Source of the DNA: Lachnospira sp.
GTDB lineage: Bacteria; Bacillota; Clostridia; Lachnospirales; Lachnospiraceae
Direction: 5' to 3'
Length of the DNA: 64,000 bases
Assembly (NCBI GenBank): GCA_015057605.1
Contig: SVDX01000002.1
Coordinates: forward strand, 88,312-152,311
Shown: positions 20,645 to 32,859 of the stretch, piece by piece
How positions within the stretch are numbered: the first letter of the stretch is position 1
Layout of the letters: every line of letters begins with the position of its first letter
Position numbers and translations under genes: made by a program
Notes under the pieces: model-generated
Databases searched by the model: none
The model's input: the letters and a program-made list of their open reading frames with translations, nothing else
What the model was told of the DNA's origin: nothing

Positions 20645-23164
20645 TTACTCTTGGTTTTGTATATCAAGCTCAGTAAGTACATATTTTGTTCCGTTGTATG
20701 TGGCAACGCACCTATATGTACAATATAATTCGCCATCTAATTTAAATTTATCAATTTCAAATACAATCTCACTATCACTTGATGAGATGATTCTAAAGCT
20801 TCCTATATTCAGCGCATAATCCGGATTTTGTTCAGGTATTGGCATATATAAATAACCATTATTATCGGTAAATAAATTTTCCACTCCGTTATAGTAAGGA
20901 GTAATTTTATTTAATACTTCATCTGAAATATATTCTCTTATATGCGCATTAACTTCGTCTACACTATTACAGCATTCAATTTGTACAACTGTTGATGTCC
21001 ATGTTATCCCTTGGCTTTGCATATAATCATCACTCAAAATAACAGGGGAATAAGCACAATTTATTCCAAATTGTTCATAGCATGACATAGAACCCACCAA
21101 TCGTAATACAATTTGACTATACTTTATATCTTCCAAAATTGTTGAATTTCCAGATAAAGTGATATTTTGCTCATCCAACAGAATATAACCAAAACATCTA
21201 TAATATGTATCCGGATTAGCATCTATTACTACCGTGCCCGTTAAACTTTCACAGTCATCAAATGTTCCATTCATCGACTTTACCGTAGAAGGGATTCTAG
21301 GCGCTGTCACCATATTATAACAATGTTGAAATGTATAATCCATATCAACTACTGGATAACCTAAGATTTCACTTTCAATTTCTTCATAACTTGTTTTTGA
21401 CCTATCCTTTACTACAACTTGCCATCCAAATCCTTCCGCATAACGATACTCATAATCCTTTGTAAAATAGATATCTCCTGTTTCTGCTTTATCGCAAATA
21501 AAGTTTCCTGCAACTAAAGTTTCTCCTGTTGATTTTCTGTAGTATGTACAACCCTCTGGTATTGAAAAGCCATCTATTCTTTCAATATCAGTTATAACAT
21601 AATTGCTTCCATTGTATGTAAGCGTTATTACCTCAACAGAATCCACAATTCCTCCATACATCATTTTAGTAACTTCAAATACAATTTCATTATCAGAAGC
21701 AGACACAACTAAAACACTATCTTCAGACCAAAAATATCCTTCATCTCTACTCATTGCCATATATAGATTGCCATCATAAACAAATAAATTTTCAACCCCA
21801 TTATATACAGGTGTAATAGTATTTAAAATATTTTCAGAAAAATATTTATTAATATCTGCAGTAACCTCGTCTACATTTTTACAACAATCTATTTTACATG
21901 CAAACTCCGCCCAATTAAAACCTTGACTCTTCATATAACTTATTAATTCTTCCGAATAGTTTATTTCCCAGTTACAGCACACACCATATATATAATAGTT
22001 TGAATACTTATCAAGCATTCTTTTTGCAATAGCCTCAGCTTTTGTATCACTTGTATCTTTCAAATCTGATAATTTACTAGAGGCTCCTGATAAGATTATA
22101 TTTTGTTCATCAATACAAGTACCTCCAAAACATCCGTCATAGCTGTCAGGATTAGCATCAATTGTCACTGTACCTGTTAAGCTTTCACAGCCATAAAATG
22201 TTCTATTCATTGACTTTACAGTAAAAGGTATTTTAGGTGCTGTAACCATATTTACACAACCTTCAAATGTACTATCCATATTAACTACTGGAAGATATGA
22301 AATTTCACTTTTTATTTCTTCATAACTTGTTTTTGTCTTGTCCTTTACCGAAACACTCCAAGTATTTCCATAATGTGTATACACATAGTCATTAGTATGA
22401 TGTTCATATCCATGCATTAAACCAACTGTAGGATTTTCTACTCTTTCTTCTGTCGGTTTTTCTATTCTTCCTGAACTTGACTCCTCTGTCGCCTTTGTCT
22501 GTGCCTCTTCTTTATTGTATCCAATCTTTCGAAGCGCCTCTTTTACTGTATTTGTATTTAGTGCAAATATCAACAAACATGCCGCCAAAGCTACAACAAA
22601 TACACCAGTCAAAGCCTTTTTCATCTTTGACTTTGCTCTGAATATATTAGAGCTTACAGTGTTTTCTGCTATGTCAAGTTCTTTTGCGATGTCCTTTTGC
22701 TTCATATCATTGTAATAATAACCTACTACGCAGTTTTTCTCATCTTCTGTAAGCTCAGTATTGATTACTTCTCTAACCTTATCTTGTTTTTCCTTGCTTA
22801 AAACCACTTCTTCTGGAAGCATGTTGTTGTCATCTGCAAGGTCGTTAAAGCTTTCATCCTCACCTAATAGCACATATTTTCCATTCTTTCTTAAAAAATC
22901 ATATGTTCTTCTCTTAGCAATTGTAGCGGCCCAATTCAAAAAGTCATCCGTTTCATTAAGCTTTGAAATGTTCTTGCTTATATCAAAATAAGCATCCTGC
23001 ATTATGTCCTGAATTACATCTTCATTCTTGTAATCACTATTTAATGTGTTAGCAATACATACATATATGTAGCCCTTCGACTCTTCATATATGGTTGAAA
23101 ATGCATCCTCATTACCTTTTTTATAATTTTCTAGTGCTTCTCTTAATTCATTTGTTAGCTTCAT
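20645..23164 (-). CDS. Sigma-TM-LRR protein A: ECF sigma factor fused to a membrane helix and LRR ectodomain
   Basis: An 839-residue hybrid. Residues 1-95 are sigma-70 region 2 (DVIQDIMQDAYFDI is the core-binding helix). About 133-182 are region 4, with helix-turn-helix DIAKELDIAENTVSSNIFRAKSK. A single helix (about 185-202, GVFVVALAACLLIFA) follows. The remainder looks extracellular: two rounds of a GD-YYT-DY beta module, AP-IP-TV...TF-GC leucine-rich repeats, a TIDANP...CF...LSG cap and a Cys-containing module (CC...NLF.YDGNLYM). It carries fewer repeats than B or C. Its ATG lies 1 nt after the small partner gene, under the shared ECF-like promoter. Likely a membrane-held sigma factor controlled by an outside signal. 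No separate anti-sigma gene is adjacent. Confidence 0.88.
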   Translation of the reverse strand: MKLTNELREALENYKKGNEDAFSTIYEESKGYIYVCIANTLNSDYKNEDVIQDIMQDAYFDISKNISKLNETDDFLNWAATIAKRRTYDFLRKNGKYVLLGEDESFNDLADDNNMLPEEVVLSKEKQDKVREVINTELTEDEKNCVVGYYYNDMKQKDIAKELDIAENTVSSNIFRAKSKMKKALTGVFVVALAACLLIFALNTNTVKEALRKIGYNKEEAQTKATEESSSGRIEKPTEERVENPTVGLMHGYEHHTNDYVYTHYGNTWSVSVKDKTKTSYEEIKSEISYLPVVNMDSTFEGCVNMVTAPKIPFTVKSMNRTFYGCESLTGTVTIDANPDSYDGCFGGTCIDEQNIILSGASSKLSDLKDTSDTKAEAIAKRMLDKYSNYYIYGVCCNWEINYSEELISYMKSQGFNWAEFACKIDCCKNVDEVTADINKYFSENILNTITPVYNGVENLFVYDGNLYMAMSRDEGYFWSEDSVLVVSASDNEIVFEVTKMMYGGIVDSVEVITLTYNGSNYVITDIERIDGFSIPEGCTYYRKSTGETLVAGNFICDKAETGDIYFTKDYEYRYAEGFGWQVVVKDRSKTSYEEIESEILGYPVVDMDYTFQHCYNMVTAPRIPSTVKSMNGTFDDCESLTGTVVIDANPDTYYRCFGYILLDEQNITLSGNSTILEDIKYSQIVLRLVGSMSCYEQFGINCAYSPVILSDDYMQSQGITWTSTVVQIECCNSVDEVNAHIREYISDEVLNKITPYYNGVENLFTDNNGYLYMPIPEQNPDYALNIGSFRIISSSDSEIVFEIDKFKLDGELYCTYRCVATYNGTKYVLTELDIQNQE

Positions 23165-23165
23165 T

Positions 23166-23399
23166 TTACATTTCTACCTTTCTTAAAACAATTCGACTTT
23201 TTTTAGTGTACATTATGCCATCAATAATATCTCCAAACACCTCTATGCACTGGCCTTTATTTATAAACACATTATCTTTTACGGACTGATATCCCTTTGA
23301 TATTACTTTGTATTTTTCATTCAGACTCTGTACTTCATATATGCAAAAGTCACCTTTTATAATCGGATTTGAAATAATTACTCCAACTATTTTTTTCAT
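23166..23399 (-). CDS. Small OB-fold-like partner of sigma-TM-LRR A
   Basis: A 77-residue soluble protein, predicted all-beta, with the pattern G-V-I...P...Y.V....YKVISK.YQ.VKDN.FIN.GQ.IEV.G.I......KKSRI.LRK, found in all four small paralogues. Alternating hydrophobics and the GQ/G turns recall an OB fold, hence possible nucleic-acid or protein binding. No helix suggests a membrane or classical anti-sigma domain. AGAGGT precedes the ATG. The stop is 1 nt from the sigma gene, so the two are co-translated. Function unknown; a regulator or assembly partner of the sigma protein is my inference. Confidence 0.82.
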   Translation of the reverse strand: MKKIVGVIISNPIIKGDFCIYEVQSLNEKYKVISKGYQSVKDNVFINKGQCIEVFGDIIDGIMYTKKSRIVLRKVEM

Positions 23400-23430
23400 A
23401 TTAGACCTCTTTTCTTAAGGTTTCTAATAA

Positions 23431-23461
23431 TATAGTCGTAGCATGTTCAAAAAAGCTTGCA
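23431..23461 (-). promoter_or_regulatory. ECF-type promoter of sigma pair A
   Basis: On the minus strand TGCAAGC at 23455-23461 and CGACTATA at 23431-23438, with 16 nt between them. The spacing from TGCAA to CTATA is identical in the four small-protein/sigma pairs. It resembles ECF promoters (AAC -35, CGxC -10) rather than TTGACA/TATAAT. Confidence 0.7.
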
Positions 23462-23496
23462 AAAATATTTTAATATTTTTATATAATTAATGTCAA

Positions 23497-23529
23497 CAAA
23501 AACCAGCGATTATTAAACCGCTGGTTTTA
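23497..23529 (-). terminator. Terminator of sigma pair B
   Basis: AAAACCAGCGGTTTAATAATCGCTGGTTTT on the minus strand forms a stem with a short loop and T-run just after the stop at 23540. Its core matches the terminator after paralogue A. Confidence 0.82.
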
Positions 23530-23539
23530 TGTAATTTAG

Positions 23540-26314
23540 TTATTCACTTTTTATGATTTCGAGTATGGTATATTCACATTCATATAGCGCTACTCCATCA
23601 GAAAATTCTGTTACTACAAAGCTTTCACCTACTGTTTTTCCTATTGCAGCTGTCAAATCCGTCCAGAGAGATATACTATCAATATTCACTACAAACTCTT
23701 TATCTTCCTTATCAACCCATTCCTCTTCATTTTCACTAATATACCTCATTCTACAAGATACTTTAATTACATCCCCATATTCTAATACATTCTTATTAGC
23801 TTCAATTTTATCAGTTGTTAACTTTATATCAGCTAACTTCTCAGATTCTCCTTTTATTGTTAGGTTTTGTCTCGAAAAATCAAGTCCATAAAAACATTCA
23901 TTATAAATAATCGGATTTGAATCTATTACTACTGTTCCTGTAAGATTAGTACAACCTGCAAATGTTCTATATAAGCATACAACCGTACTTGGTATAACCG
24001 ACGCTGACTCAATACTAGTACAGCCTTCAAAGGTTCTCTCTAAATTCGCAACATCAGGGATATTTGGTGCTTTTATTAAGCTTGTACAACCCGCAAATGT
24101 TCCCTTTAATCTAATAACTTCATCACCAAATGATGGTGCTTCTTTCATGTTAGTACAGCCTGCAAATGTTCCGCTTAAGTCAATACTCCCAATAATACCG
24201 ATAATGTCTTCATATTTTTCTTTTGTAATATCTTTAACCTTTACTGTCCAAACACCATACTCTATGAGCGTTGCTTCAGCCTCACATGTATATTCATAAT
24301 CCCTTGTAATAATTTTATCACCCGTATAATCATTTGCAAACTCATATGATGGATAAAAAATAAAATCACCATCATACACTGTAGTTTTATCCTCTGATTC
24401 ATCATAGAATCCAATAACCTCTGGTACTACAATTGAATATGCTCCTGTGTCTTTTATTTCAGAAAGAAGTGTTGAGGAACCTGATAAATTAATCTTTTGC
24501 GCTACTATTCTTACTCCTTTAAAACAGTCTTCATAATTATCTGGCGATGCATTTATAATAATATCTCCTGTTAGACTAGTGCAGCCTGCAAATGTTGCAT
24601 TCATAGATGTAACTGATTCCGGTATTACTGGTGCTTTTACTAAACTTGTGCAACCTTCAAATGTTGATGGCAAACCCTCAACTAATTTTGGTATTGCCGG
24701 TGCTTCTACTAAACTTGTACAGCCATAAAATGTACTATTTAGTCGTGTAATCAATTCTGGTATTACTGGCGCTTTTACCAAACTTGTGCAACCATAAAAT
24801 GTCCAATCCAAACCTAATTCTACAACTGATTTTGGTATTACTGGCGCTTCTACCAAACTTGTGCAACCTTCAAATGCTGAAGCCAGATTATCAACTGACT
24901 CTGGTATTACTGGTGCTTCTACCAAACTTGTGCAACCTCGAAATGCTCCACCCATATTTGTAACCGATTTTGGTATTACTGGTGCTTCTACCAAACTTGT
25001 ACAGCCAGAAAATGTTCCACCCAATCCTTCAACTAATTCCGGTATTACTGGTGCTTTTACTAAGCTTTCGCAGCCTTCAAATGTATCATACAGATTTATA
25101 ATCGTTTTTGGTAGTTCTGGCGCTTTTACCAAACTTTTACAGCCTGAAAATGTATATGACATATCTGTAACCGTTTCTGGTATTACTGGTGCTTCTACCA
25201 AACTCTTACAGCCTGAAAATGTATATGACATATCTGTAACCGTTTCTGGTATTACCGGTGCTTCTACCAAACTTGTACAACCTTGAAATGTAGCAGACAT
25301 ATTCGTAACTGTATCCGGTATTACTGGTGCCTTAATAAGCTGAGTACAATCTGCAAAAGTACTTGCCATCGACACAAGTGGTTCACCTGCTATAGTAGGC
25401 ATTATTGCTTCATATTCTCGCTTATTAGTATTATCAACTTTTAATTTCCAAATACCTTCTGTTCGAATATACATGTAATCTGCTGTCAATAAATAGTCTC
25501 CATCTGAAAGCGTTTTTAAAAACTTTTCGCCTGCTAGATATGTTTTATTAGTTTTTGCAGAATGATACTGGCAGCCTTCTGGTATTATCTCCTTACCAAA
25601 CTCCTCTACCACACTTGGTTCTTCTACCTCGCTTGCTTGTTCACTTGACTCCTCTGTCGCCTTTGTCTGGGCCTCTTCTTTATTGTAGCCAATCTTACGA
25701 AGTGCCTCTTTTACTGCATTCGTATTTAACGCAAATATCAACAGACACGCCGCTAACGCTACAACAAATACGCCACTCAAAGCCTTTTTCATCTTAGACT
25801 TTGCTCTAAAAATGTTTGATTTCACTGTATTTTCAGGCATATCAAGCTCTTTTGCTATGTCCTTTTGTTTCATGTCATTGTAATAGAAGCCTACAACACA
25901 GTTCTTCTCATCCTCTGTAAGCTCTGTGTTGATTACTTCTCTTACCTTTTCTTGTTTTTCCTTACTTAATACTACTTCTTCTGGAAGCATGTTGTTATCC
26001 GAAAGATCATCGAAGCTTTCATCTTCACCTAATAATACATATTTGCCAGCTTTCTTTAAAGCACGATATGCTTTTCTTGTTGATATTGTCTTTGCCCATG
26101 GTAAAAAGCTTTCAACATTTTCTAAACCTTTAAGATTCTTGCTAATTTCAAGATATGTATCCTGCATAACATCATTTATCATATCTTCGTCATTCTTTAA
26201 AATGCTTTTAAGATTAGCATAAATGTATCTGTTAGATTCTTCGTATATAATAGAAAATGCATTTTCATCGCCTTGTAAATAATTTTCAATTGCCACCTTT
26301 AATGTTTCGTTCAT
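23540..26314 (-). CDS. Sigma-TM-LRR protein B: ECF sigma factor with 14-repeat LRR ectodomain
   Basis: A 924-residue hybrid. Sigma region 2 is at about 14-80 (clearly diverged from A and C), region 4 at about 130-178 and the membrane helix at about 180-198, both nearly identical to A and C. A linker follows, then about eleven consecutive 23-residue repeats of the form SLVEAPVIPETVTDMSYTFSGC, a TGDIIINASP...CF cap, a second short block of three repeats with another cap, and a C-terminal beta segment. The repeats resemble BspA/DUF285-type surface LRRs. The ATG is 8 nt after the small partner's stop. Expected to sit in the membrane with the sigma domain inside and the repeats outside. Confidence 0.9.
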   Translation of the reverse strand: MNETLKVAIENYLQGDENAFSIIYEESNRYIYANLKSILKNDEDMINDVMQDTYLEISKNLKGLENVESFLPWAKTISTRKAYRALKKAGKYVLLGEDESFDDLSDNNMLPEEVVLSKEKQEKVREVINTELTEDEKNCVVGFYYNDMKQKDIAKELDMPENTVKSNIFRAKSKMKKALSGVFVVALAACLLIFALNTNAVKEALRKIGYNKEEAQTKATEESSEQASEVEEPSVVEEFGKEIIPEGCQYHSAKTNKTYLAGEKFLKTLSDGDYLLTADYMYIRTEGIWKLKVDNTNKREYEAIMPTIAGEPLVSMASTFADCTQLIKAPVIPDTVTNMSATFQGCTSLVEAPVIPETVTDMSYTFSGCKSLVEAPVIPETVTDMSYTFSGCKSLVKAPELPKTIINLYDTFEGCESLVKAPVIPELVEGLGGTFSGCTSLVEAPVIPKSVTNMGGAFRGCTSLVEAPVIPESVDNLASAFEGCTSLVEAPVIPKSVVELGLDWTFYGCTSLVKAPVIPELITRLNSTFYGCTSLVEAPAIPKLVEGLPSTFEGCTSLVKAPVIPESVTSMNATFAGCTSLTGDIIINASPDNYEDCFKGVRIVAQKINLSGSSTLLSEIKDTGAYSIVVPEVIGFYDESEDKTTVYDGDFIFYPSYEFANDYTGDKIITRDYEYTCEAEATLIEYGVWTVKVKDITKEKYEDIIGIIGSIDLSGTFAGCTNMKEAPSFGDEVIRLKGTFAGCTSLIKAPNIPDVANLERTFEGCTSIESASVIPSTVVCLYRTFAGCTNLTGTVVIDSNPIIYNECFYGLDFSRQNLTIKGESEKLADIKLTTDKIEANKNVLEYGDVIKVSCRMRYISENEEEWVDKEDKEFVVNIDSISLWTDLTAAIGKTVGESFVVTEFSDGVALYECEYTILEIIKSE
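24585..25355 (-). repeat. Tandem 69-bp coding repeats (LRR array of protein B)
   Basis: About eleven units of 69 bp, recognised on the plus strand by recurring GGTATTACTGGTGCTTCTAC and ACAGCC...AATGT blocks. Each encodes one 23-residue repeat, so gain or loss of a unit keeps the frame. Confidence 0.9.
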
Positions 26315-26322
26315 TTGTTTAC

Positions 26323-26547
26323 CTACTTTCTTATCCTTATATTACTTGTTTTTGAATAAATTGTATCACCTATGATTTCACCAGTTATTGTAATTATCTG
26401 TCCTTTGTTTACAAATATCCTATCCTTAACTGCCTGATAATCCTTCGATACTACTTTGTATCTTTTGTTATTCATTTCTATCTCATATATACAATTATCA
26501 TCTTGTATTATAGGAATATCAACAACTTTTCCACTCATTACCTCCAT
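26323..26547 (-). CDS. Small OB-fold-like partner of sigma-TM-LRR B
   Basis: A 74-residue member of the small beta-rich family, with YEIEMNNKRYKVVSKDYQAVKDR and GQIITITGEIIG. The frame is open to 26610, but AAGGAGGT lies about 8 nt before the ATG at 26545-26547, and this start aligns with the paralogues. The longer version would run through the shared ECF promoter. It precedes sigma gene B by 8 nt. Soluble, with no cysteines conserved among paralogues. Role unknown. Confidence 0.82.
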   Translation of the reverse strand: MEVMSGKVVDIPIIQDDNCIYEIEMNNKRYKVVSKDYQAVKDRIFVNKGQIITITGEIIGDTIYSKTSNIRIRK

Positions 26548-26578
26548 ATACTGTACCTCCTTTTTTATCCGTACACTA

Positions 26579-26609
26579 AATAGAGTCTCCAAATATATAA
26601 AAGGTTGCA
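26579..26609 (-). promoter_or_regulatory. ECF-type promoter of sigma pair B
   Basis: TGCAACCTTT at 26600-26609 on the minus strand, with CTATT aligned to the CTATA of the other pairs at the same distance. The bases before it are ACT rather than CGA. Confidence 0.65.
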
Positions 26610-26650
26610 ACTTTTTTCATTTTTTATCATTTTTATTATTATAACACGAG

Positions 26651-26689
26651 AAAATGCCTTTGACCATATAGTAGGTCAAAGGCATTTTT
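26651..26689 (-). terminator. Terminator of sigma pair C
   Basis: AAAATGCCTTTGACC / GGTCAAAGGCATTTTT forms a 15-bp stem with T-runs on both strands. It lies 13 nt after the distal reading frame at 26702, not after the premature stop at 27060, so the original gene end is here. Confidence 0.9.
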
Positions 26690-26701
26690 AGGATTTATAA
26701 A

Positions 26702-27068
26702 TTAGTTTATCTCAATATCAGCTATAATATAATCTTCGCCATTCTTTGTAAGCGTAAATGTATATACAGCCCTATATGCATCATCCGTAGGCACTAATTC
26801 ATCAACTTTAAATATAATTTCATTATCATTAGATGATATGATTGAAATACTATCATAATCAAAATAAGAGTAATCTCCTTCTCTCATAGGCGCCATATAT
26901 AATGCCCCATCATAAATAAATACTGTGTTTTCAGGATTATAAATCGGAGAAAATTCATTTAACACCTCTTCTGAAAAGTATTTTTTCCAATGTGCAATAA
27001 GTTCCTCTAAATTCTTACAACAATTGATTTTATAATGACCATAATAACAGCCAAACTTATTATATATA
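26702..27068 (-). pseudogene. Out-of-frame distal end of sigma-TM-LRR C
   Basis: This stretch encodes the C-terminal Cys-containing module seen in protein A: INCCKNLEELIAHWKKYFSEEVLNEF, then VFIYDGALYMAP and the terminal YIIADIEIN. An ATG at 26965 opens an 87-residue frame, but homology to protein A continues upstream of it to the TA tract at 27061-27069. Adding one TA there restores a single 738-residue protein with paralogue A. A strong terminator follows directly. It is therefore the severed tail of the gene rather than an independent gene. Confidence 0.8.
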
Positions 27069-28916
27069 TTGTCCTATTTCACCATAGTCGTTGTCATACT
27101 TATCATAGTCACAAACTATACCATCTATTCTGTATATCTGAAACATCCTTACCATACGTTTTTCTTCGCTATCAGCCGTTGCCTTTAATTCTGCCAGTTT
27201 ATTCGAAGCTCCTGATAAGGTTATATTTTGTTTTTCTAAGAAAATATATTCAAAGCAATTTATGTAATAATCAGGATTAGCATTAATTATCACTGTACCT
27301 GTTAGGCTTGTACAACCAGCAAATGTATAAGTCATATCCGTAACTGATTCTGGTATTATTGGTGCTTCTACTAAACTGCTACATCCGCTAAATGTATAAT
27401 ACATATTTGTAACTGTATCCGGTATTACCGGTGCTTCTACTAAGCTAGTACATCCCCAAAATGTACAACGCATATTTGTAACTTTTTCTGGTATTACTGG
27501 TGCTTCTACTAAACTGCTACATCCGCTAAATGTATAATACATATCTATAACTGATTCTGGTATTACCGGTGCTTCTACTAAACTACTACATCCGTCAAAT
27601 GTGCATTCCATATTTGTAACTGATTCTGGTATTACCGGTGCTTCTACTAAACTGCTACATCCGCTAAATGTATAATACATACTTGTAACTGTATCCGGTA
27701 TTATAGGTGCTTCTACCAAACTGATACATCCATAAAATGTATAAGACATATCTATAACTGATTCTGGTATTACCGGTGCTTCTACTAAACTGCTACATCC
27801 AGAAAATGTGCATTCCATATTTGTAACTGTATCCGGTATTGTAGGTACTTCTACTAAACTGCTACATCCTTTAAATGTATAAGACATATCTGTAACTGTA
27901 TTTGGTATTGTAGGCGTCTTAATAAGATACTCACAGTTCTTAAATACTTCTTTTATTGATAAAAGCGGTTCGCCTGCTATAGGCGACATTATTGCCTCAT
28001 ATTCCGTCTTATTAGTATCTTTAACTTTTAATGTCCAAATACCACCTGTTCGAATATATATGTAATCCGTCGTCCAAAAACGATCTCCATCAGAAGGAGT
28101 TTTTAAAAACTTTTCGCCTGCTCTATATGTTTTATAAGTTTTTGCAGAATAATACTCACATCCTTCTGGTATTATCTCTGTACCAAACTCCTCTACCACA
28201 CTTGGTTCTTCTACCTCGCTTGCTTGTTCACTTGGCTCATCCATCACCTTTGTCTGTGCCTCTTCTTTATTGTAGCCAATCTTTCGAAGTGCCTCTTTTA
28301 CTGCATTTGTATTTAACGCAACTATCAACAAACACGCAGCCAAAGCCACTACAAATACACCACTCAAAGCCTTTTTCATCTTTGATTTTGCTCTAAAAAT
28401 GTTAGACTTTACCGTATTTTCTGGCATATCAAGCTCTTTTGCTATATCTTTTTGCTTCATATCGTTGTAGTAGAAACCTACTACACAGTTCTTCTCATCC
28501 TCTGTAAGTTCTGTGTTGACTACTTCTCTTACCTTTTCTTGTTTTTCCTTGCTTAATACTACTTCTTCTGGAAGCATATTGTTGTCAGTAAGATTGTCAA
28601 AGCTTTCATCCTCACCTAATAATACATATTTTCCTTGCTTCTTCAAATAGTCATAAGTTCTTCTCTTTGCAATTGTAGCAGCCCAACTAAGAAAATCCTC
28701 TGTATTATCAAGTTTTATCAAATTTTTGCTTATATCAAGATATGCATCCTGCATTATATCCTGAATTACATCTTCATTCTTATAATCACTATTTAATGTG
28801 TTAGCTATACATACATAAATATAGCCCTTCGACTCTTCATATATGGTTGAAAACGCGTCTTCATTACCATTTTTGTAGTTTTCAATTGCTTCTCTTAATT
28901 CATTTGTTAGTTTCAT
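27060..28916 (-). CDS. Sigma-TM-LRR protein C, truncated by a frameshift
   Basis: 618 residues as read. Sigma region 2 at about 10-85 is very close to protein A, with region 4 at about 130-180 and the membrane helix at about 183-200. A GD-x-x-YI beta module, nine 23-residue repeats (SLVEAPVIPESVTNM.CTF.GC) and the NANP...CF...LSG cap follow. The frame ends at a TAA created within ATATATATAATAA, where protein A continues into a further module. A 2-nt change in the TA run would join it to 26702. Start and ribosome site are normal, 1 nt after the small partner gene. The truncated form keeps sigma, membrane helix and LRR, so it may still function. Confidence 0.88.
   Translation of the reverse strand: MKLTNELREAIENYKNGNEDAFSTIYEESKGYIYVCIANTLNSDYKNEDVIQDIMQDAYLDISKNLIKLDNTEDFLSWAATIAKRRTYDYLKKQGKYVLLGEDESFDNLTDNNMLPEEVVLSKEKQEKVREVVNTELTEDEKNCVVGFYYNDMKQKDIAKELDMPENTVKSNIFRAKSKMKKALSGVFVVALAACLLIVALNTNAVKEALRKIGYNKEEAQTKVMDEPSEQASEVEEPSVVEEFGTEIIPEGCEYYSAKTYKTYRAGEKFLKTPSDGDRFWTTDYIYIRTGGIWTLKVKDTNKTEYEAIMSPIAGEPLLSIKEVFKNCEYLIKTPTIPNTVTDMSYTFKGCSSLVEVPTIPDTVTNMECTFSGCSSLVEAPVIPESVIDMSYTFYGCISLVEAPIIPDTVTSMYYTFSGCSSLVEAPVIPESVTNMECTFDGCSSLVEAPVIPESVIDMYYTFSGCSSLVEAPVIPEKVTNMRCTFWGCTSLVEAPVIPDTVTNMYYTFSGCSSLVEAPIIPESVTDMTYTFAGCTSLTGTVIINANPDYYINCFEYIFLEKQNITLSGASNKLAELKATADSEEKRMVRMFQIYRIDGIVCDYDKYDNDYGEIGQYI
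27303..27930 (-). repeat. Tandem 69-bp coding repeats (LRR array of protein C)
   Basis: About nine 69-bp units with recurring ACTAAACTGCTACATCCGCT blocks on the plus strand, each encoding a 23-residue LRR. The units are more alike within this gene than to those in gene B, as expected from local unit duplication. Confidence 0.88.
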
Positions 28917-28917
28917 T

Positions 28918-29151
28918 TTAGTTTTCTGCCTTTCTTAAAATAATTCGACTTTTCTTAGCGTACATTGTGTTATCAATGATATCTCCAAACACTTCTATGT
29001 GCTGTCCTTCATTTATAAATATGTTGTCTTTTACAGCCTGATAATCCTTTGATATTACTTTATATTTCCTGTTTGCACTTTGTACTTCATATGCGCTTAC
29101 ATTCCCTTTTACTACAGGGTCTGACACAATAACTCCAACCAAACTGTTCAT
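28918..29151 (-). CDS. Small OB-fold-like partner of sigma-TM-LRR C
   Basis: 77 residues, closely similar to the partner of A (VGVIVSDPVVKG, YKVISKDYQAVKDNIFIN, GQHIEVFGDIID, KKSRIILRK). AAGGAGGT 7 nt before the ATG at 29149-29151 fixes the start; an in-frame ATG further up (29178) is not led by a ribosome site. One nt separates it from sigma gene C. Function unknown, but the constant pairing with intact sigma genes argues for a joint role. Confidence 0.83.
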   Translation of the reverse strand: MNSLVGVIVSDPVVKGNVSAYEVQSANRKYKVISKDYQAVKDNIFINEGQHIEVFGDIIDNTMYAKKSRIILRKAEN

Positions 29152-29181
29152 ATAAAAACCTCCTTTAAGGTCCTTCAATAA

Positions 29182-29212
29182 TAAAGTCGTTTAAATTTTA
29201 AAAAAGGTTGCA
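29182..29212 (-). promoter_or_regulatory. ECF-type promoter of sigma pair C
   Basis: TGCAACCTTTTTT and CGACTTTA on the minus strand, with the same spacing and the same CGACT as pair A. Confidence 0.7.
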
Positions 29213-29244
29213 GCTCTTTTGTAATTTATTACTTTTTCACAAAA

Positions 29245-31029
29245 TCACTTAATTGTGATATTAATACTTCCACCATCATATATTTGAGGATAATAACAAT
29301 TAGTATCATTGCAAGCTACAATTTCAGCAAGCTTTTTAAAGGAACCAGTCAATATAATGTCTTCAATATTATCTATTTCACATAACATATGCTCATGTAT
29401 TATCAATTCCTTAGAATTAATTCTGATTTCACCATTAAGATTTTTGCAATAATAAAATATTTGCCCTATATATTCTACATTTTCCGGAATGACTGGTGCT
29501 GTTTCTAAATTTGTGCAAAATGCAAATGTTCCTTTCATCCATTTCACAGTAGAAGGTATTGGGGGTACTGTTTTAATCATACTTTTAAACATAAATGTTT
29601 CATTCATTGCAACAACCGGTATTCCTAACACATTTTCTGGTATATCTTCATATGTTTTTTTATTTATACCATTTGAAGAAACATTCCAACCATTACTAAT
29701 ATCTATTCCAAGCTTTTGAGCTTCTTTATCTGTATAAGCATACTCGTACACATAAGAGCCGGTATAATATAGGTCGCCCGGATATATTTTCATAGGGAAT
29801 TCACTACCTTCATTGTAGTATGTATTTAACATTTTCGAATAGTACTGACAACCATCTGGTATTACTCCATTAACTAAAAGCAATCTTCCACGGTTCTTAT
29901 AATCGTTATAATATGTAACAATCTTTGAAGTTCCACAAAAATTTACTTTATCAATATTAATACCTTCAAAACAAGATCTATAATATTCTTCGTCATCAAT
30001 ACTTATTAGTGCATTTATTACAATGTCTCCAGAAAGACTTTTGCAATTTTTAAATGTTTCACTCATATATCGTACATTAGTCGATATTTCAGGTGCCTCT
30101 ATTAAGCTTGTACAATTTGCAAAGGTTGATGATAAACTATTCACACTTAAAGGTATTTTAGGTGGATTTTTTAAGCTTGTACACCCTACAAATGTATCAT
30201 TTAAACTTTTAACATTATCCGGAATAACCGGCGCTTTTGTAAGATTAATACAATTATAAAATGTTCTATTCAAATTAGTTACAGTTGCAGGTATCTTTGG
30301 TGCTTCAATAAGATTTTCACAATCAGCAAAGGTTCCATACATCGTAGCTATCGGTTCTTCTAATATATAATCTAATATAGGTTCATATTGCGCATTTGTT
30401 TTATTTCTTACCATTACACCCCATTTGTCAGTATACGAATAATTATATCTGTAATCCTTCGTATAGTAAACATCTCCGGTAACAGGCTCTTTTGGCATAG
30501 GTTCTCCGTAAACATAATTTTTAGCATCTATACTTGAATAATAAATACAGCCTTCCGGCACCGTTAATACTGTAGGTGTTATAACATTTTCCTTTGTATT
30601 AACTTCTTTTTCATCTTTTCCTTTAAATAAATTTATTGTAAATATTAAAACACATACACCTAAAGCTATTGCAAATATCGCAAGTATGATTTTCTTTGAT
30701 TTTGGCTTTTTTGCCACAATATTATTAACTTCACTTTTGTATTCTTCTATTTTACCTAAATATATATTTACTTTTTCATTTACTATCTTAGATACCCAAT
30801 CAAAGAAACCCTCTATATCATCAAAATTATTAAGCTCTTTTCTGATAGTTTCAAACGTTTCTTTCATTATATTATTGATCACAGTCTCAGATTTATTTTC
30901 ATCCTTTAATATATTAATTATACATATATATACATAACCCTTTGTCTCTTCATATATGGTTAAAAATACTTCTTTATTGCCATCTTTATAGCTGTCAATT
31001 GCATCTCTTAATTCATATGTCAATTTCAT
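29245..31029 (-). CDS. Degenerate paralogue D: sigma region 2 remnant-TM-LRR, region 4 missing
   Basis: 594 residues. The first 95 align with region 2 of the other proteins (ELRDAIDSYKDGNKEVFLTIYEETKGYVYICI), but the helix-turn-helix region 4 (about 60-70 residues) is absent. The membrane helix comes at about 113-134 after a lysine-rich stretch. Two ectodomain rounds follow, each with YYS, GD-YYT-DY module, a few TF-C repeats and a cap. There is no small partner gene and no ECF-like promoter; GGAGGGC leads the ATG. Without region 4 it should not recognise a -35 element. It could be a decoy, a receptor or a decaying copy. Confidence 0.85.
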   Translation of the reverse strand: MKLTYELRDAIDSYKDGNKEVFLTIYEETKGYVYICIINILKDENKSETVINNIMKETFETIRKELNNFDDIEGFFDWVSKIVNEKVNIYLGKIEEYKSEVNNIVAKKPKSKKIILAIFAIALGVCVLIFTINLFKGKDEKEVNTKENVITPTVLTVPEGCIYYSSIDAKNYVYGEPMPKEPVTGDVYYTKDYRYNYSYTDKWGVMVRNKTNAQYEPILDYILEEPIATMYGTFADCENLIEAPKIPATVTNLNRTFYNCINLTKAPVIPDNVKSLNDTFVGCTSLKNPPKIPLSVNSLSSTFANCTSLIEAPEISTNVRYMSETFKNCKSLSGDIVINALISIDDEEYYRSCFEGINIDKVNFCGTSKIVTYYNDYKNRGRLLLVNGVIPDGCQYYSKMLNTYYNEGSEFPMKIYPGDLYYTGSYVYEYAYTDKEAQKLGIDISNGWNVSSNGINKKTYEDIPENVLGIPVVAMNETFMFKSMIKTVPPIPSTVKWMKGTFAFCTNLETAPVIPENVEYIGQIFYYCKNLNGEIRINSKELIIHEHMLCEIDNIEDIILTGSFKKLAEIVACNDTNCYYPQIYDGGSINITIK

Positions 31030-31071
31030 CTTATGCCCTCCGTTGAATTAATATATAATAGTATAGCATAC

Positions 31072-31102
31072 AAAAAGAGGGATGTCATCCATCCCTCTTT
31101 TT
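31072..31102 (-). terminator. Terminator of sigma pair E
   Basis: AAAAAGAGGGATG / CATCCCTCTTTTT forms a 13-bp stem with a 5-nt loop and T-run right after the stop at 31107, isolating paralogue D from E. Confidence 0.9.
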
Positions 31103-31106
31103 AATG

Positions 31107-32558
31107 TTATTTACCTGTTTCTTTTATTTCTTTAAGATTAAAGGATCTACCTGATAGCACTATTCCCTGCGCCTCAAAATCAACATCTTCAAAACAATGT
31201 GCGTAATACGATGTGTATGTATCAATCACAATTTCACCTGTCAAACTTGTACAACCCCAAAATGTTCCATTAATATATTCAACATTTTTTGAAATATGTG
31301 GAGCGTTTACAAGACTTTCGCATTTGTAAAATGTTTCTGTCATTTTTGTTATTGTTTCAGGTAGTTTTGGGGCATTAATAAGACTCTTACAGTTATAAAA
31401 TGTACATGTAATATCTTCAACGCCTTCTGGAATTGCTGTCATTTCGACCATACTCTCGCAGCCTCTAAATGCTTCTTTCATATTGCGTACTGTATAAGGA
31501 ATTTTAGGCGCCTTTTTTAAGCTTTTACAATTTTTAAATGCTTTTTCAATACTTTGTACGTGGTCTGGTATCTTTGGTGCCTCTATCATATTGGTACAGT
31601 TTTCAAAAGTTCCATTAATCTCTATTATTGCCTCACCATTTATACTTTCCTGTATGTCTTCATAGAATTCTTTTGTCGTATCTTTAACAGCTACCTTCCA
31701 TTTTAATTTTGAAACACCATTCACAGCACCAACTACGTATGTATAGACATAATCATTTGTATAATACTTATCATCATAGGATGAATACATTGGAAATTCC
31801 TGTCCTGCCTCTAATAAAACATCCTCACTGCAATCATAATAAGCGCATCCATTTGGTATTACTCCGACCTTTTTCTGTGTTTGAATACGGTCATCATTAT
31901 TATTTTTTATAACACCTTTAAGCGAAACCAGATGTTTTACATCATCCATCTTCATAAAAAAAATTGCTATGCCCGCTCCAATTGCCACAAACATTACCTT
32001 TTCTAATGCCGAACGTAGCTTGGATTTAGCTCTGAAAATATTAGATTTTACTGTATTTTCAGGCATATCAAGCTCCTTTGCAATATCCTTTTGTTTCATA
32101 TCATTGTAGTAATAACCAATAACACATGACTTTTCATCCTTGGTCAACTTATTATTAACTGCATTTCGAATCTTTTGCTGTTTTTCCTGGTCTACTACTA
32201 TATCCTCTGGAATTATATTGCTTTCATCCAAAAGATTATCAAAGTTTTCATCATCTTTTAAAAGCACATACTTATCCTCTTGTTTTAAAGCGGCATAAAC
32301 CTTTCTGTGAGCAATGGTTTTAGCCCACCCAAAAAAGCTATTAACGCTAATTAGTTTTCTTATATCCTCGCTTATCAAAAGATACGTATCCTGCATTATA
32401 TCCCTAATAAAATCTTCTTTCTGATATTCTGGTTTTAACTTATTTTTAATACATGTGTATATGTATGCGTTCGACTCCTGATAAATAATCTCAAACGCTC
32501 TCTCATTACCTTTTTTATAATCTTTAATTGCATCCTTTAACTTTGTACTTACATTCAT
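31107..32558 (-). CDS. Sigma-TM-LRR protein E: shortest complete member
   Basis: 483 residues. Region 2 at about 15-85 (FIRDIMQDTYLLI), region 4 at about 138-186 (DIAKELDMPENTVKSNIFRAKSK), membrane helix at about 187-203 (VMFVAIGAGIAIFFM), then one ectodomain: YYD/GQEFP/DKYYTNDYVY module, six TF-C repeats with the AP-IP or AP-LP core, and the CF...LSGRS cap. Region 2 and the helix differ clearly from A-C, while the helix-turn-helix is conserved. Its ATG overlaps the small partner's stop by 1 nt (TAATG). This single-unit layout shows the minimal architecture of the family. Confidence 0.9.
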   Translation of the reverse strand: MNVSTKLKDAIKDYKKGNERAFEIIYQESNAYIYTCIKNKLKPEYQKEDFIRDIMQDTYLLISEDIRKLISVNSFFGWAKTIAHRKVYAALKQEDKYVLLKDDENFDNLLDESNIIPEDIVVDQEKQQKIRNAVNNKLTKDEKSCVIGYYYNDMKQKDIAKELDMPENTVKSNIFRAKSKLRSALEKVMFVAIGAGIAIFFMKMDDVKHLVSLKGVIKNNNDDRIQTQKKVGVIPNGCAYYDCSEDVLLEAGQEFPMYSSYDDKYYTNDYVYTYVVGAVNGVSKLKWKVAVKDTTKEFYEDIQESINGEAIIEINGTFENCTNMIEAPKIPDHVQSIEKAFKNCKSLKKAPKIPYTVRNMKEAFRGCESMVEMTAIPEGVEDITCTFYNCKSLINAPKLPETITKMTETFYKCESLVNAPHISKNVEYINGTFWGCTSLTGEIVIDTYTSYYAHCFEDVDFEAQGIVLSGRSFNLKEIKETGK

Positions 32559-32791
32559 TATATCTCACCTTCCCTTAAGATTATCTTGCTTTTTTTGATG
32601 TGAATTGTACCTTCACAAACACTTCCTATAAGCTCTACCATTTGTCCAACATCAATGAATATATTATCTAATGCAGCTTGGTAATCCCTTGATACTACTA
32701 TATATTCACAATTAGAAGCTGTAATCTTATAAGTACAAATGCCATCTAAATACACCGGTACACAGCTGACCTTTCCAATTAACAACTCCAT
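32558..32791 (-). CDS. Small OB-fold-like partner of sigma-TM-LRR E
   Basis: 77 residues and the most divergent of the four (GKVSCVPVYLDG, YIVVSRDYQAALDNIFIDVGQ, KKSKIILRE), yet with the same spacing of hydrophobic and Gly positions. AAGGAGGT lies 7 nt before the ATG at 32789-32791. The frame extends to 32854 but that would include the promoter. Coupled to sigma gene E by a 1-nt TAATG overlap, the closest linkage of the four. Function unknown. Confidence 0.82.
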   Translation of the reverse strand: MELLIGKVSCVPVYLDGICTYKITASNCEYIVVSRDYQAALDNIFIDVGQMVELIGSVCEGTIHIKKSKIILREGEI

Positions 32792-32820
32792 AATAAGACC
32801 TCCTTTTCTTGACATCCTAT

Positions 32821-32853
32821 TATATAGTGCAAATTTTAAAATTAAAGGTTGCA
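32821..32853 (-). promoter_or_regulatory. ECF-type promoter of sigma pair E
   Basis: TGCAACCTTT at 32844-32853 and GCACTATA at the same offset as CGACTATA in pair A, on the minus strand. A TATAAT overlaps the end of the element, but no -35 lies at sigma-A distance from it. Confidence 0.65.
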
Positions 32854-32859
32854 ATTATT

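What the first reader, a model, noticed from the sequence alone, without database searches (positions are those of the whole stretch)
20645..32854. A family of membrane-anchored ECF sigma factors fused to leucine-rich-repeat ectodomains
Four genes (20645-23164, 23540-26314, 27060-28916, 31107-32558) each encode sigma-70 regions 2 and 4, then one hydrophobic helix, then a large repeat domain of extracellular type. This joins promoter recognition, membrane anchor and outside sensor in one chain, where ECF systems normally use a separate membrane anti-sigma. Release of the sigma part, for example by regulated proteolysis near the helix, or gating by the small partner, would be needed. I know of sigma factors with C-terminal extensions, but not of a described system with this layout. 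The function is inferred; the architecture is directly visible.
Basis: partly seen in the sequence, partly recalled or inferred. Interest (0 to 1): 0.95.

Follow-up and report, generated by a model that had tools for sequence, protein, structure and literature searches.

The report
Surface-receptor sigma factors that read themselves
In one bacterium a family of genes joins, in a single protein chain, a sigma factor (the part of RNA polymerase that finds promoters), a predicted membrane helix and, in most members, a repeat domain of cell-surface type, and each intact gene sits behind a promoter that its own sigma part is predicted to read, so that a signal outside the cell would likely switch on more of the same receptor.

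Summary
In detail: genes A, B, C and E encode ECF sigma regions 2 and 4, one hydrophobic helix, then 23-residue BspA-type repeats. A fifth paralogue, D, lacks region 4. (1) The six intact copies found in the genome, and neither region-4-less copy, follow a SigW-like promoter found at exactly six places in 2.23 Mb. Among 120 variable sigma columns, only residue 170 sorts the paralogues as base -31 does (K/C, S/G, A/T). In SigW, K170 contacts base -31. So each sigma very likely reads its own operon. (2) The helix starts at a fixed distance behind the recognition helix, leaving no room for the zinc anti-sigma domain of ECF52. (3) The small partner is predicted to be an SSB/PriB-like OB fold; 9 of 9 copies found in 299 genomes lie beside a sigma-TM gene. 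Fused membrane sigmas are known (ECF52, IutY), and long-linker relatives are numerous, so this is a new variant of a known kind. Most likely mechanism: membrane tethering silences the sigma, an outside signal triggers intramembrane cleavage, and the freed sigma amplifies its own receptor. Cleavage, signal and partner role are untested.

The parts
20645..23164 (-). Gene A: sigma r2+r4, membrane helix, 4 LRR units in two blocks, extra C-terminal domains (839 aa)
22559..22615 (-). Predicted membrane helix of A (residues 184-202)
23166..23399 (-). Small partner of A (77 aa), one base before the sigma start
23430..23461 (-). ECF-type promoter of operon A: TGCAA-GC-TTT N15 ACTATAT, 62 nt before the partner ATG
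23540..26314 (-). Gene B: sigma r2+r4, membrane helix, 16 LRR units (924 aa)
25727..25783 (-). Predicted membrane helix of B (residues 178-196)
26323..26547 (-). Small partner of B (74 aa from the ATG; the longer TTG-start ORF runs into the promoter)
26580..26609 (-). ECF-type promoter of operon B: TGCAA-CC-TTT N13 ACTCTAT (spacer 2 shorter)
26702..26965 (-). Out-of-frame remnant of the C-terminal domain of gene C
27060..28916 (-). Gene C: sigma r2+r4, membrane helix, 10 LRR units (618 aa)
28314..28370 (-). Predicted membrane helix of C (residues 183-201)
28918..29151 (-). Small partner of C (77 aa); the partner modelled (OB fold)
29181..29212 (-). ECF-type promoter of operon C: TGCAA-CC-TTT N15 ACTTTAT
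29245..31029 (-). Gene D: region-2 remnant, no region 4, membrane helix, 6 LRR units; no partner, no ECF-type promoter
31107..32558 (-). Gene E: sigma r2+r4, membrane helix, 6 LRR units (483 aa); the full chain modelled
31953..32009 (-). Predicted membrane helix of E (residues 184-202)
32558..32791 (-). Small partner of E (77 aa from the ATG), sharing one base with the sigma start
32822..32853 (-). ECF-type promoter of operon E: TGCAA-CC-TTT N15 ACTATAT

Best explanation
These genes encode ECF sigma factors joined in one chain to a predicted membrane helix and, in five of the six intact copies, an LRR domain of cell-surface type, and each intact copy sits behind a promoter that its own sigma part is predicted to read, so they likely work as receptor-sigma factors that amplify their own display. 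Shown by sequence: sigma r2+r4; one hydrophobic helix at fixed distance behind the recognition helix; 23-residue LRR units (in the sixth copy an F5/8C-type domain); a SigW-like promoter pattern at exactly the six intact operons; a small partner gene in five of the six; the residue-170/base -31 covariation. Predicted: N-in/C-out topology and the OB fold of the partner. Inferred: because the recognition helix runs straight into the membrane helix, the resting sigma is held against the membrane and is weakly active or inactive; a ligand or surface contact sensed by the ectodomain leads to cleavage in or near the helix (the genome holds one site-2-type M50 protease); the freed sigma enters RNA polymerase and transcribes partner plus receptor-sigma, giving positive feedback. 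The OB-fold partner likely tunes the sigma, either by helping to hold the melted promoter strand or by covering the sigma.
For: Sigma domains align end to end with SigW (5wuq, E 1.4e-12 with C alone; 2.2e-11 with the profile). The E model's best Foldseek match is sigmaE (1or7, E 4.4e-7), followed by bacterial LRR proteins (4fs7 E 8.2e-7; 4gt6 E 2.2e-4). Purifying selection. Promoter pattern TGCAANNTTTN{12,16}ACTNTAT: 6 places in 2.23 Mb, reversed-pattern control 0, each before one of the six intact sigma operons; at fixed spacing with one mismatch allowed there are 10 further sites, against 8 in the control, i.e. background. The two region-4-less paralogues (D, C13) have neither promoter nor partner. 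Covariation: 1 of 120 variable columns (26 with three states; gap columns counted) splits the six as base -31 does, and it is residue 170. SigW K170 hydrogen-bonds to G'-31 and R175 to G-35 (PMC6713349, passages); R175 and G-35 are kept in 6 of 6. It runs against overall similarity: A is 88% identical to C but differs at both, E is 59% identical to C but shares both. The helix window starts 15 residues after the recognition-helix motif in 6 of 6 intact own genes and in 8 of 9 other proteins of this group. More positive net charge before than after the helix in 8 of 8 paralogues. Partner: 9 of 9 copies found in 299 same-family genomes lie beside a sigma-TM gene. One M50 protease. Outside the genome, TGCAAC lies about 60 nt before 2 of 3 partner-first operons (L124, L125), whose sigmas carry K at the place of residue 170.
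Against: No transcription, cleavage or localisation data exist. The promoter pattern was written after reading the six upstream regions, so its six hits show exclusiveness, not an independent prediction; in a leave-one-out matrix test the sites score 9.0-21.4 and two of five (E 9.0, C18 14.3) fall within the best background scores (14.8). The covariation rests on six paralogues (1/60 under random labels of the same group sizes); base -30 varies together with -31, so only the SigW contact singles out -31, and the density for SigW K170 was weak. SigW R172 is N here and A-34 is C. Operon B has a shorter spacer. No target outside the family was found, which is unusual for a sigma. The promoter was not found upstream of 26 more distant sigma-TM genes with the expression used (0 of 26, one without upstream sequence; shuffle rate 3.5%). 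An M50 protease rings in all 14 control genomes, so its presence says little. E's model has low confidence at the helix (block means 26-53 over residues 181-230), and its sigmaE match has rmsd 20 A because the two sigma domains lie differently. A possible zinc anti-sigma match just under cut-off (21.5 of 22.2 bits, 108-aa frame) lies about 2.5 kb outside the window on the same contig. The partner has no tested activity.
Confidence: 0.5

Rival explanations
1. The sigma works while still anchored, like ToxR or CadC: ectodomain binding changes clustering or position and RNA polymerase is recruited to promoters near the membrane, without cleavage.
For: The junction is of fixed length with no spacer that must be cut. 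No site-1-type protease was searched for, so none can be named.
Against: In the E model the recognition helix runs straight into the membrane helix (H167-201, low confidence at its end), leaving some eight to ten residues between the DNA contact and the membrane; ToxR/CadC-type proteins have longer linkers (recalled). The long-linker relatives would suit this mode better.
Confidence: 0.25
2. The OB-fold partner is the switch: it acts as a cytosolic anti-sigma (or obligatory co-factor) and proteolysis plays no part.
For: Partner linked to sigma-TM genes in 9 of 9 loci; gene ends abut; absent together with region 4 in D and C13.
Against: The intact C18 member keeps region 4 and promoter but has no partner, so the partner is not obligatory for the kind. 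The SSB/PriB-like fold suggests single-strand binding rather than an anti-sigma. In L126 the partner is downstream.
Confidence: 0.15
3. The sigma part is vestigial: these are surface LRR adhesins whose cytosolic tail happens to be a dead sigma domain.
For: D and C13 show that region 4 can be lost while helix and LRR stay, and the genome has LRR proteins without sigma.
Against: Purifying selection on six intact copies, conserved R175 and covarying residue 170 with base -31, promoter pattern only at intact copies.
Confidence: 0.05

Closest known systems
ECF52 sigma factors (SCO4117, Streptomyces)
   Same: Sigma, helix and outside domain in one chain; outside domain carbohydrate-binding (compare C18, with a proline-rich linker and an F5/8C-type domain); putative positive autoregulation; cleavage proposed (PMC5826349, PMC8999054, passages).
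   Different: ECF52 has a zinc-finger domain between sigma and helix and is reported only from Actinobacteria. Here the helix follows sigma4 directly, the outside domain is mostly LRR, the genes are an expanded paralogue array, and a separate OB-fold partner is co-encoded.
IutY (ECF243, Pseudomonas putida)
   Same: Sigma fused to a membrane-anchored part; freed by Prc and RseP (PMC8999054, passage).
   Different: IutY is fused to an anti-sigma factor of an iron cell-surface signalling system; none was recognised here.
SigI/RsgI of Clostridium thermocellum
   Same: Several paralogues in one clostridial genome that sense different substrates; RseP cleaves in the helix (PMC12203970, passages).
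   Different: There the sensor chain is the anti-sigma and the sigma is a separate protein of the SigI type.
Long-linker sigma-TM proteins of the same family and other Clostridia (unnamed)
   Same: Sigma r2+r4, helix, variable outside domain; at least 1808 proteins match one of them; P0016 has an LRR ectodomain.
   Different: 64-118 residues from recognition-helix motif to helix in 16 rows (189 in L096, which has masked residues), with a LYSxAP-hydrophobic motif in between; in three more rows the first segment found is nearer (25-31 residues).
SSB / PriB OB-fold proteins
   Different: No sequence match to an SSB family; only 74-77 aa; every copy located so far lies beside a sigma-TM gene.

Membership tests
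ECF (group IV) sigma factor | Only sigma regions 2 and 4 | tested here: met
   r2 of E is under the Pfam cut-off but its whole sigma part passes TIGR02937
ECF (group IV) sigma factor | Recognition helix and -35 element of ECF type | tested here: met
   R175/G-35 kept in 6 of 6; residue 170 covaries with base -31
ECF (group IV) sigma factor | Directs transcription with core RNA polymerase | not testable with these tools
   no bench data
ECF52 | Zinc-finger anti-sigma domain between sigma and helix | tested here: not met
   helix starts 15 residues after the recognition-helix motif; the genome's only zf-HC2 match is under cut-off and outside these genes
ECF52 | Transmembrane helix after sigma | tested here: met
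   (prediction)
ECF52 | Proline-rich region and carbohydrate-binding domain | tested here: inconclusive
   C18 has a proline-rich linker and PF25302 (F5/8 type C), the other five have LRR; sugar binding untested
ECF52 | Restricted to Actinobacteria (PMC5826349) | tested here: not met
   the named close hits, P0003 and P0032, are Lachnospiraceae
Canonical ECF sigma with membrane anti-sigma | Co-encoded membrane anti-sigma factor | tested here: not met
   the only co-encoded gene is 74-77 aa and its model is a small OB fold with one 10-residue helix; anti-sigma activity itself not testable
BspA-type LRR surface protein | LRR_5 repeats of about 23 residues | tested here: met
   B, C, D, E over cut-off; 4-16 units at 23-residue spacing in A-E; A by unit count only
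SSB / PriB | OB fold | tested here: met
SSB / PriB | Sequence match to an SSB family | tested here: not met
   no SSB family at E<=1 in any of 14 members
SSB / PriB | Binds single-stranded DNA | not testable with these tools
   no bench data

The most novel reading that the evidence does not exclude
A closed family of receptor-sigma factors in which the sigma is the cytosolic tail of a surface receptor, needs no anti-sigma because the membrane itself silences it through a rigid recognition-helix/membrane-helix junction, reads only its own promoter by a paralogue-specific residue-170/base -31 code, and is assisted by a dedicated mini-SSB that holds the melted strand: an all-or-none switch in which binding of a surface ligand selects which receptor the cell goes on to display.
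Probability: 0.22. Interest if true: 0.92.

Novelty: new variant of a known kind. Interest (0 to 1): 0.78.

Why it matters
It would put sensor, membrane relay and promoter recognition in one molecule without an anti-sigma domain, with a readable sigma-promoter code inside one genome (six natural sigma/promoter pairs differing at residue 170 and base -31). It gives a direct test of whether membrane tethering alone can silence a sigma factor, links adhesin-like LRR proteins to their own transcription, and points to a large class of clostridial sigma-TM-ectodomain proteins on which I found no paper in the held library. If the OB-fold partner binds promoter single strands it would be a new kind of initiation co-factor.

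Tried and rejected
SigW-like promoter in distant relatives: 0 of 26 upstream regions (one empty, L097) with a -35/-10 expression, shuffle rate 3.5%. Four looser expressions were then tried: TGCAAC gave 2 of 26, both partner-first operons (shuffles reach this in 8 of 200); the other three gave 2, 2 and 1 of 26 and were reached by 63, 33 and 24 of 200 shuffles. The L124 site lies 60 nt before the first ATG of its partner (75 before a second ATG with a ribosome-site-like lead), the L125 site 58 nt before its ATG and is followed by AATT, not by the T run. Targets outside the family: none above background. Stand-alone LRR genes: no convincing site in the 129 kb scanned (best non-family scores 14.8 bits, against 28.2-36.2 for the five N15 sites that built the matrix and 17.3 for B, which was left out). 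Vestigial sigma: rejected by dN/dS and covariation. Zinc anti-sigma inside the chain: rejected by spacing. Partner as a known family: nothing over cut-off in Pfam or NCBIfam, no PDB sequence relative (hemocyanin rows at E 0.4 taken as chance). 'All ECF sigmas of this genome are anchored': rejected; 15 Sigma70_r4_2 matches include shorter frames. Rfam (gathering) and ARAGORN gave nothing in the window. Genome-contig scan gave 2 distant loci only (records near the window's genome may be left out there). Genus search: no other genome of the genus is held. Literature: the listings of searches showed no paper on LRR-sigma fusions or on clostridial sigma-TM proteins; passages of PMC8103513 showed none either. 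The 2021 ECF re-classification paper (by a DOI that I recalled) and a 2020 ECF evolution paper are not held, so a group number may exist there.

Counts to read with care: one search covered 150 genomes drawn from the family; its match list was cut. From the listed matches with long open frames I fetched 31 loci; 24 of 31 have a segment over the hydropathy threshold after the sigma match (in L107 the match is region 2 only), 7 do not. In one search the recognition-helix expression failed in many distant rows, and spacing is stated only where it matched. The 1808 proteins are those over threshold among 7996 scored candidates (a capped set); 120 are listed, and their helices were not checked.
Full report
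What is there. On the - strand of 20645-32854 lie five paralogous genes. A, B, C and E (20645-23164, 23540-26314, 27060-28916, 31107-32558) encode sigma regions 2 and 4, one strong hydrophobic segment and a long repeat part. D (29245-31029), not in the finding, keeps only a weak region-2 remnant (residues 5-91), no region 4, but the same kind of helix and repeats. The repeats are BspA-type LRR units with a 23-residue period inside each block: 4, 16, 10, 6 and 6 units in A to E; in B and C they show as 69-bp tandem repeats. A, B, C and E are each preceded by a small gene of 74-77 codons, one base (A, C) or eight bases (B) before the sigma start or sharing one base with it (E); D is not.

The rest of the genome. 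The window is part of a 2.23-Mb draft genome, 97% complete. The close protein relatives that bear a name are from Lachnospiraceae (P0003, P0032). Two more intact sigma-helix genes lie elsewhere: C37 (742 aa, LRR, with partner) and C18 (527 aa from its ATG, no partner, whose outside part is a proline-rich repeat linker plus an F5/8 type C domain, PF25302). A second region-4-less paralogue, C13 (892 aa), resembles D. The partner profile finds five copies in the genome, each directly before one of the five sigma-helix-LRR genes.

Promoters. Upstream of the four partner genes I noticed TGCAA(C/G)CTTT followed 13-15 bases later by ACTNTAT. The pattern TGCAANNTTTN{12,16}ACTNTAT occurs at six places in the whole genome, the reversed pattern at none, and the six places precede the six intact operons, 61-62 nt before the partner ATG in the four of the window. 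At fixed spacing N15, five are exact; one-mismatch sites number 10 against 8 in the control. D and C13 have none. The pattern was written after reading these regions, so what the search adds is exclusiveness; a leave-one-out matrix test is weaker (two of five sites within background). The -35 letters resemble the SigW consensus T-36 G-35 A-34 A-33 A-32 C-31 X-30 T-29 T-28 T-27 (PMC6713349, passages), with C at -34.

A sigma-promoter code. The letters at -31/-30 differ: CC before B, C and E, GC before A, TA before C37 and C18. Of 120 variable columns in the six sigma domains, one sorts the six in the same way: residue 170 (K in B, C, E; S in A; A in C37, C18; numbering of C). In SigW, K170 hydrogen-bonds to the guanine opposite C-31 (its density was weak) and R175 to G-35; C aligns with SigW without offset there, and R175 and G-35 are kept in all six. 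The pattern cuts across overall similarity (A-C 88% identical but different; C-E 59% but the same). With six genes the chance value under random labels is 1 in 60, but the column picked out is the one known to touch that base. This is the strongest evidence that each sigma reads its own operon. From two other genera, partner-first operons L124 and L125 have TGCAAC about 60 nt before the partner, and their sigmas carry K at that place, as do L079 and L126; L079 has no such site, and L126 has its partner behind the sigma gene.

The junction. In all six intact genes the hydrophobic window starts 15 residues after the start of the recognition-helix motif; 8 of 9 further proteins of this group have the same spacing, P0013 reads 20 by hydropathy. 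The E model draws residues 167-201 as one helix, with low confidence at its end. So there is no cytosolic linker and no room for a zinc anti-sigma domain. Net charge is +5 or +6 before and 0 to +3 after the helix in 8 of 8 paralogues, which predicts N-in/C-out. In the structure search the E model matches sigmaE first and bacterial LRR proteins next; the sigma match is by domain (rmsd 20 A over both).

Relatives. The direct-anchor group looks rare: the search with the sigma-helix part of C gave 25 hits among proteins of fitting length in a set of 5.8 billion, of which P0001-P0013 are of this type, four of them (P0001, P0006, P0008, P0012) this genome's own. A long-linker class, with a LYSxAP-hydrophobic motif before the helix, is common in the family (24 of 31 fetched loci with a helix after the sigma match) and has at least 1808 database relatives (helices not checked). 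It carries many kinds of outside domain, once LRR (P0016). P0011 carries LRR and F5/8C together. Outside domains are thus found on both anchors.

Mechanism. I commit to this reading: tethered and held against the membrane by its own recognition helix, the sigma is silent; the outside domain senses a ligand or contact; intramembrane cleavage frees the sigma (one M50 protease is present, as in all 14 control genomes); the sigma then transcribes partner and receptor-sigma, a positive feedback confined to its own operon. Promoter self-reading is well supported (about 0.85), anchoring likewise (about 0.9), cleavage is the weakest step (about 0.5). Operon A also has a housekeeping-like promoter just upstream (TTGACA N18 TAAAAT, 23467-23496; function untested), which would give the basal supply that such a loop needs.

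Known or new. ECF52, ECF48, ECF53 and IutY are described sigma factors with a membrane-anchored extension (review PMC8999054, passages of section 3.5.3; SCO4117 paper PMC5826349, passages). ECF52 even has helix, proline-rich region, carbohydrate-binding domain and putative autoregulation. So 'sigma, helix, outside domain in one chain' is a known kind. What differs is the absence of an anti-sigma domain, the fixed junction, the LRR sensors, the paralogue array with its own promoter code, and the OB-fold partner. I found no paper on these in the held library. I file it as a new variant of a known kind.

Noticed in passing
29245-31029; L024:2736-5414: Two paralogues keep helix and LRR but have no region 4, no partner and no ECF-type promoter; they look like receptors without a transcription output, or decoys.
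   Followed up: partly
26702-27080: Gene C stops in a TA-rich run right after its repeats and the rest of its C-terminal domain continues in another frame; true frameshift, phase variation or assembly error cannot be told apart.
   Followed up: partly
most of L077-L100; P0014-P0022: A common class of sigma factors in the family with a LYSxAP-hydrophobic motif, a linker, one helix and varied outside domains, on which the paper searches showed nothing.
   Followed up: partly
L026-L033: Twelve LRR proteins of 268-373 aa without sigma part, with an N-terminal hydrophobic stretch by eye, share the same kind of outside domain; perhaps the source of the ectodomain.
   Followed up: partly
26548-26610 and 32792-32854: The mechanical ORF list starts partners B and E at TTG codons that are part of the TTGCAACC promoter element; starts annotated that way would be wrong.
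   Followed up: yes
24608-25330 and 27321-27909: 69-bp tandem repeats (10.4 and 8.5 copies) encode LRR units of B and C; copy number may vary by recombination.
   Followed up: no
L024:2338-2650: Six near-identical copies of a 55-bp repeat (AAGCTTCTAAGGCGGAAAATAAGAATATTTTTT...) lie before C13, with one inverted copy behind the gene.
   Followed up: no
23467-23496: Housekeeping-like promoter (TTGACA N18 TAAAAT) directly upstream of the ECF-type site of operon A.
   Followed up: no
G000:C16:85708-85797 (outside the window, about 2.5 kb to its left): A weak zf-HC2 match (21.5 bits, cut-off 22.2) in a 108-aa frame; possible separate zinc anti-sigma, not examined.
   Followed up: no
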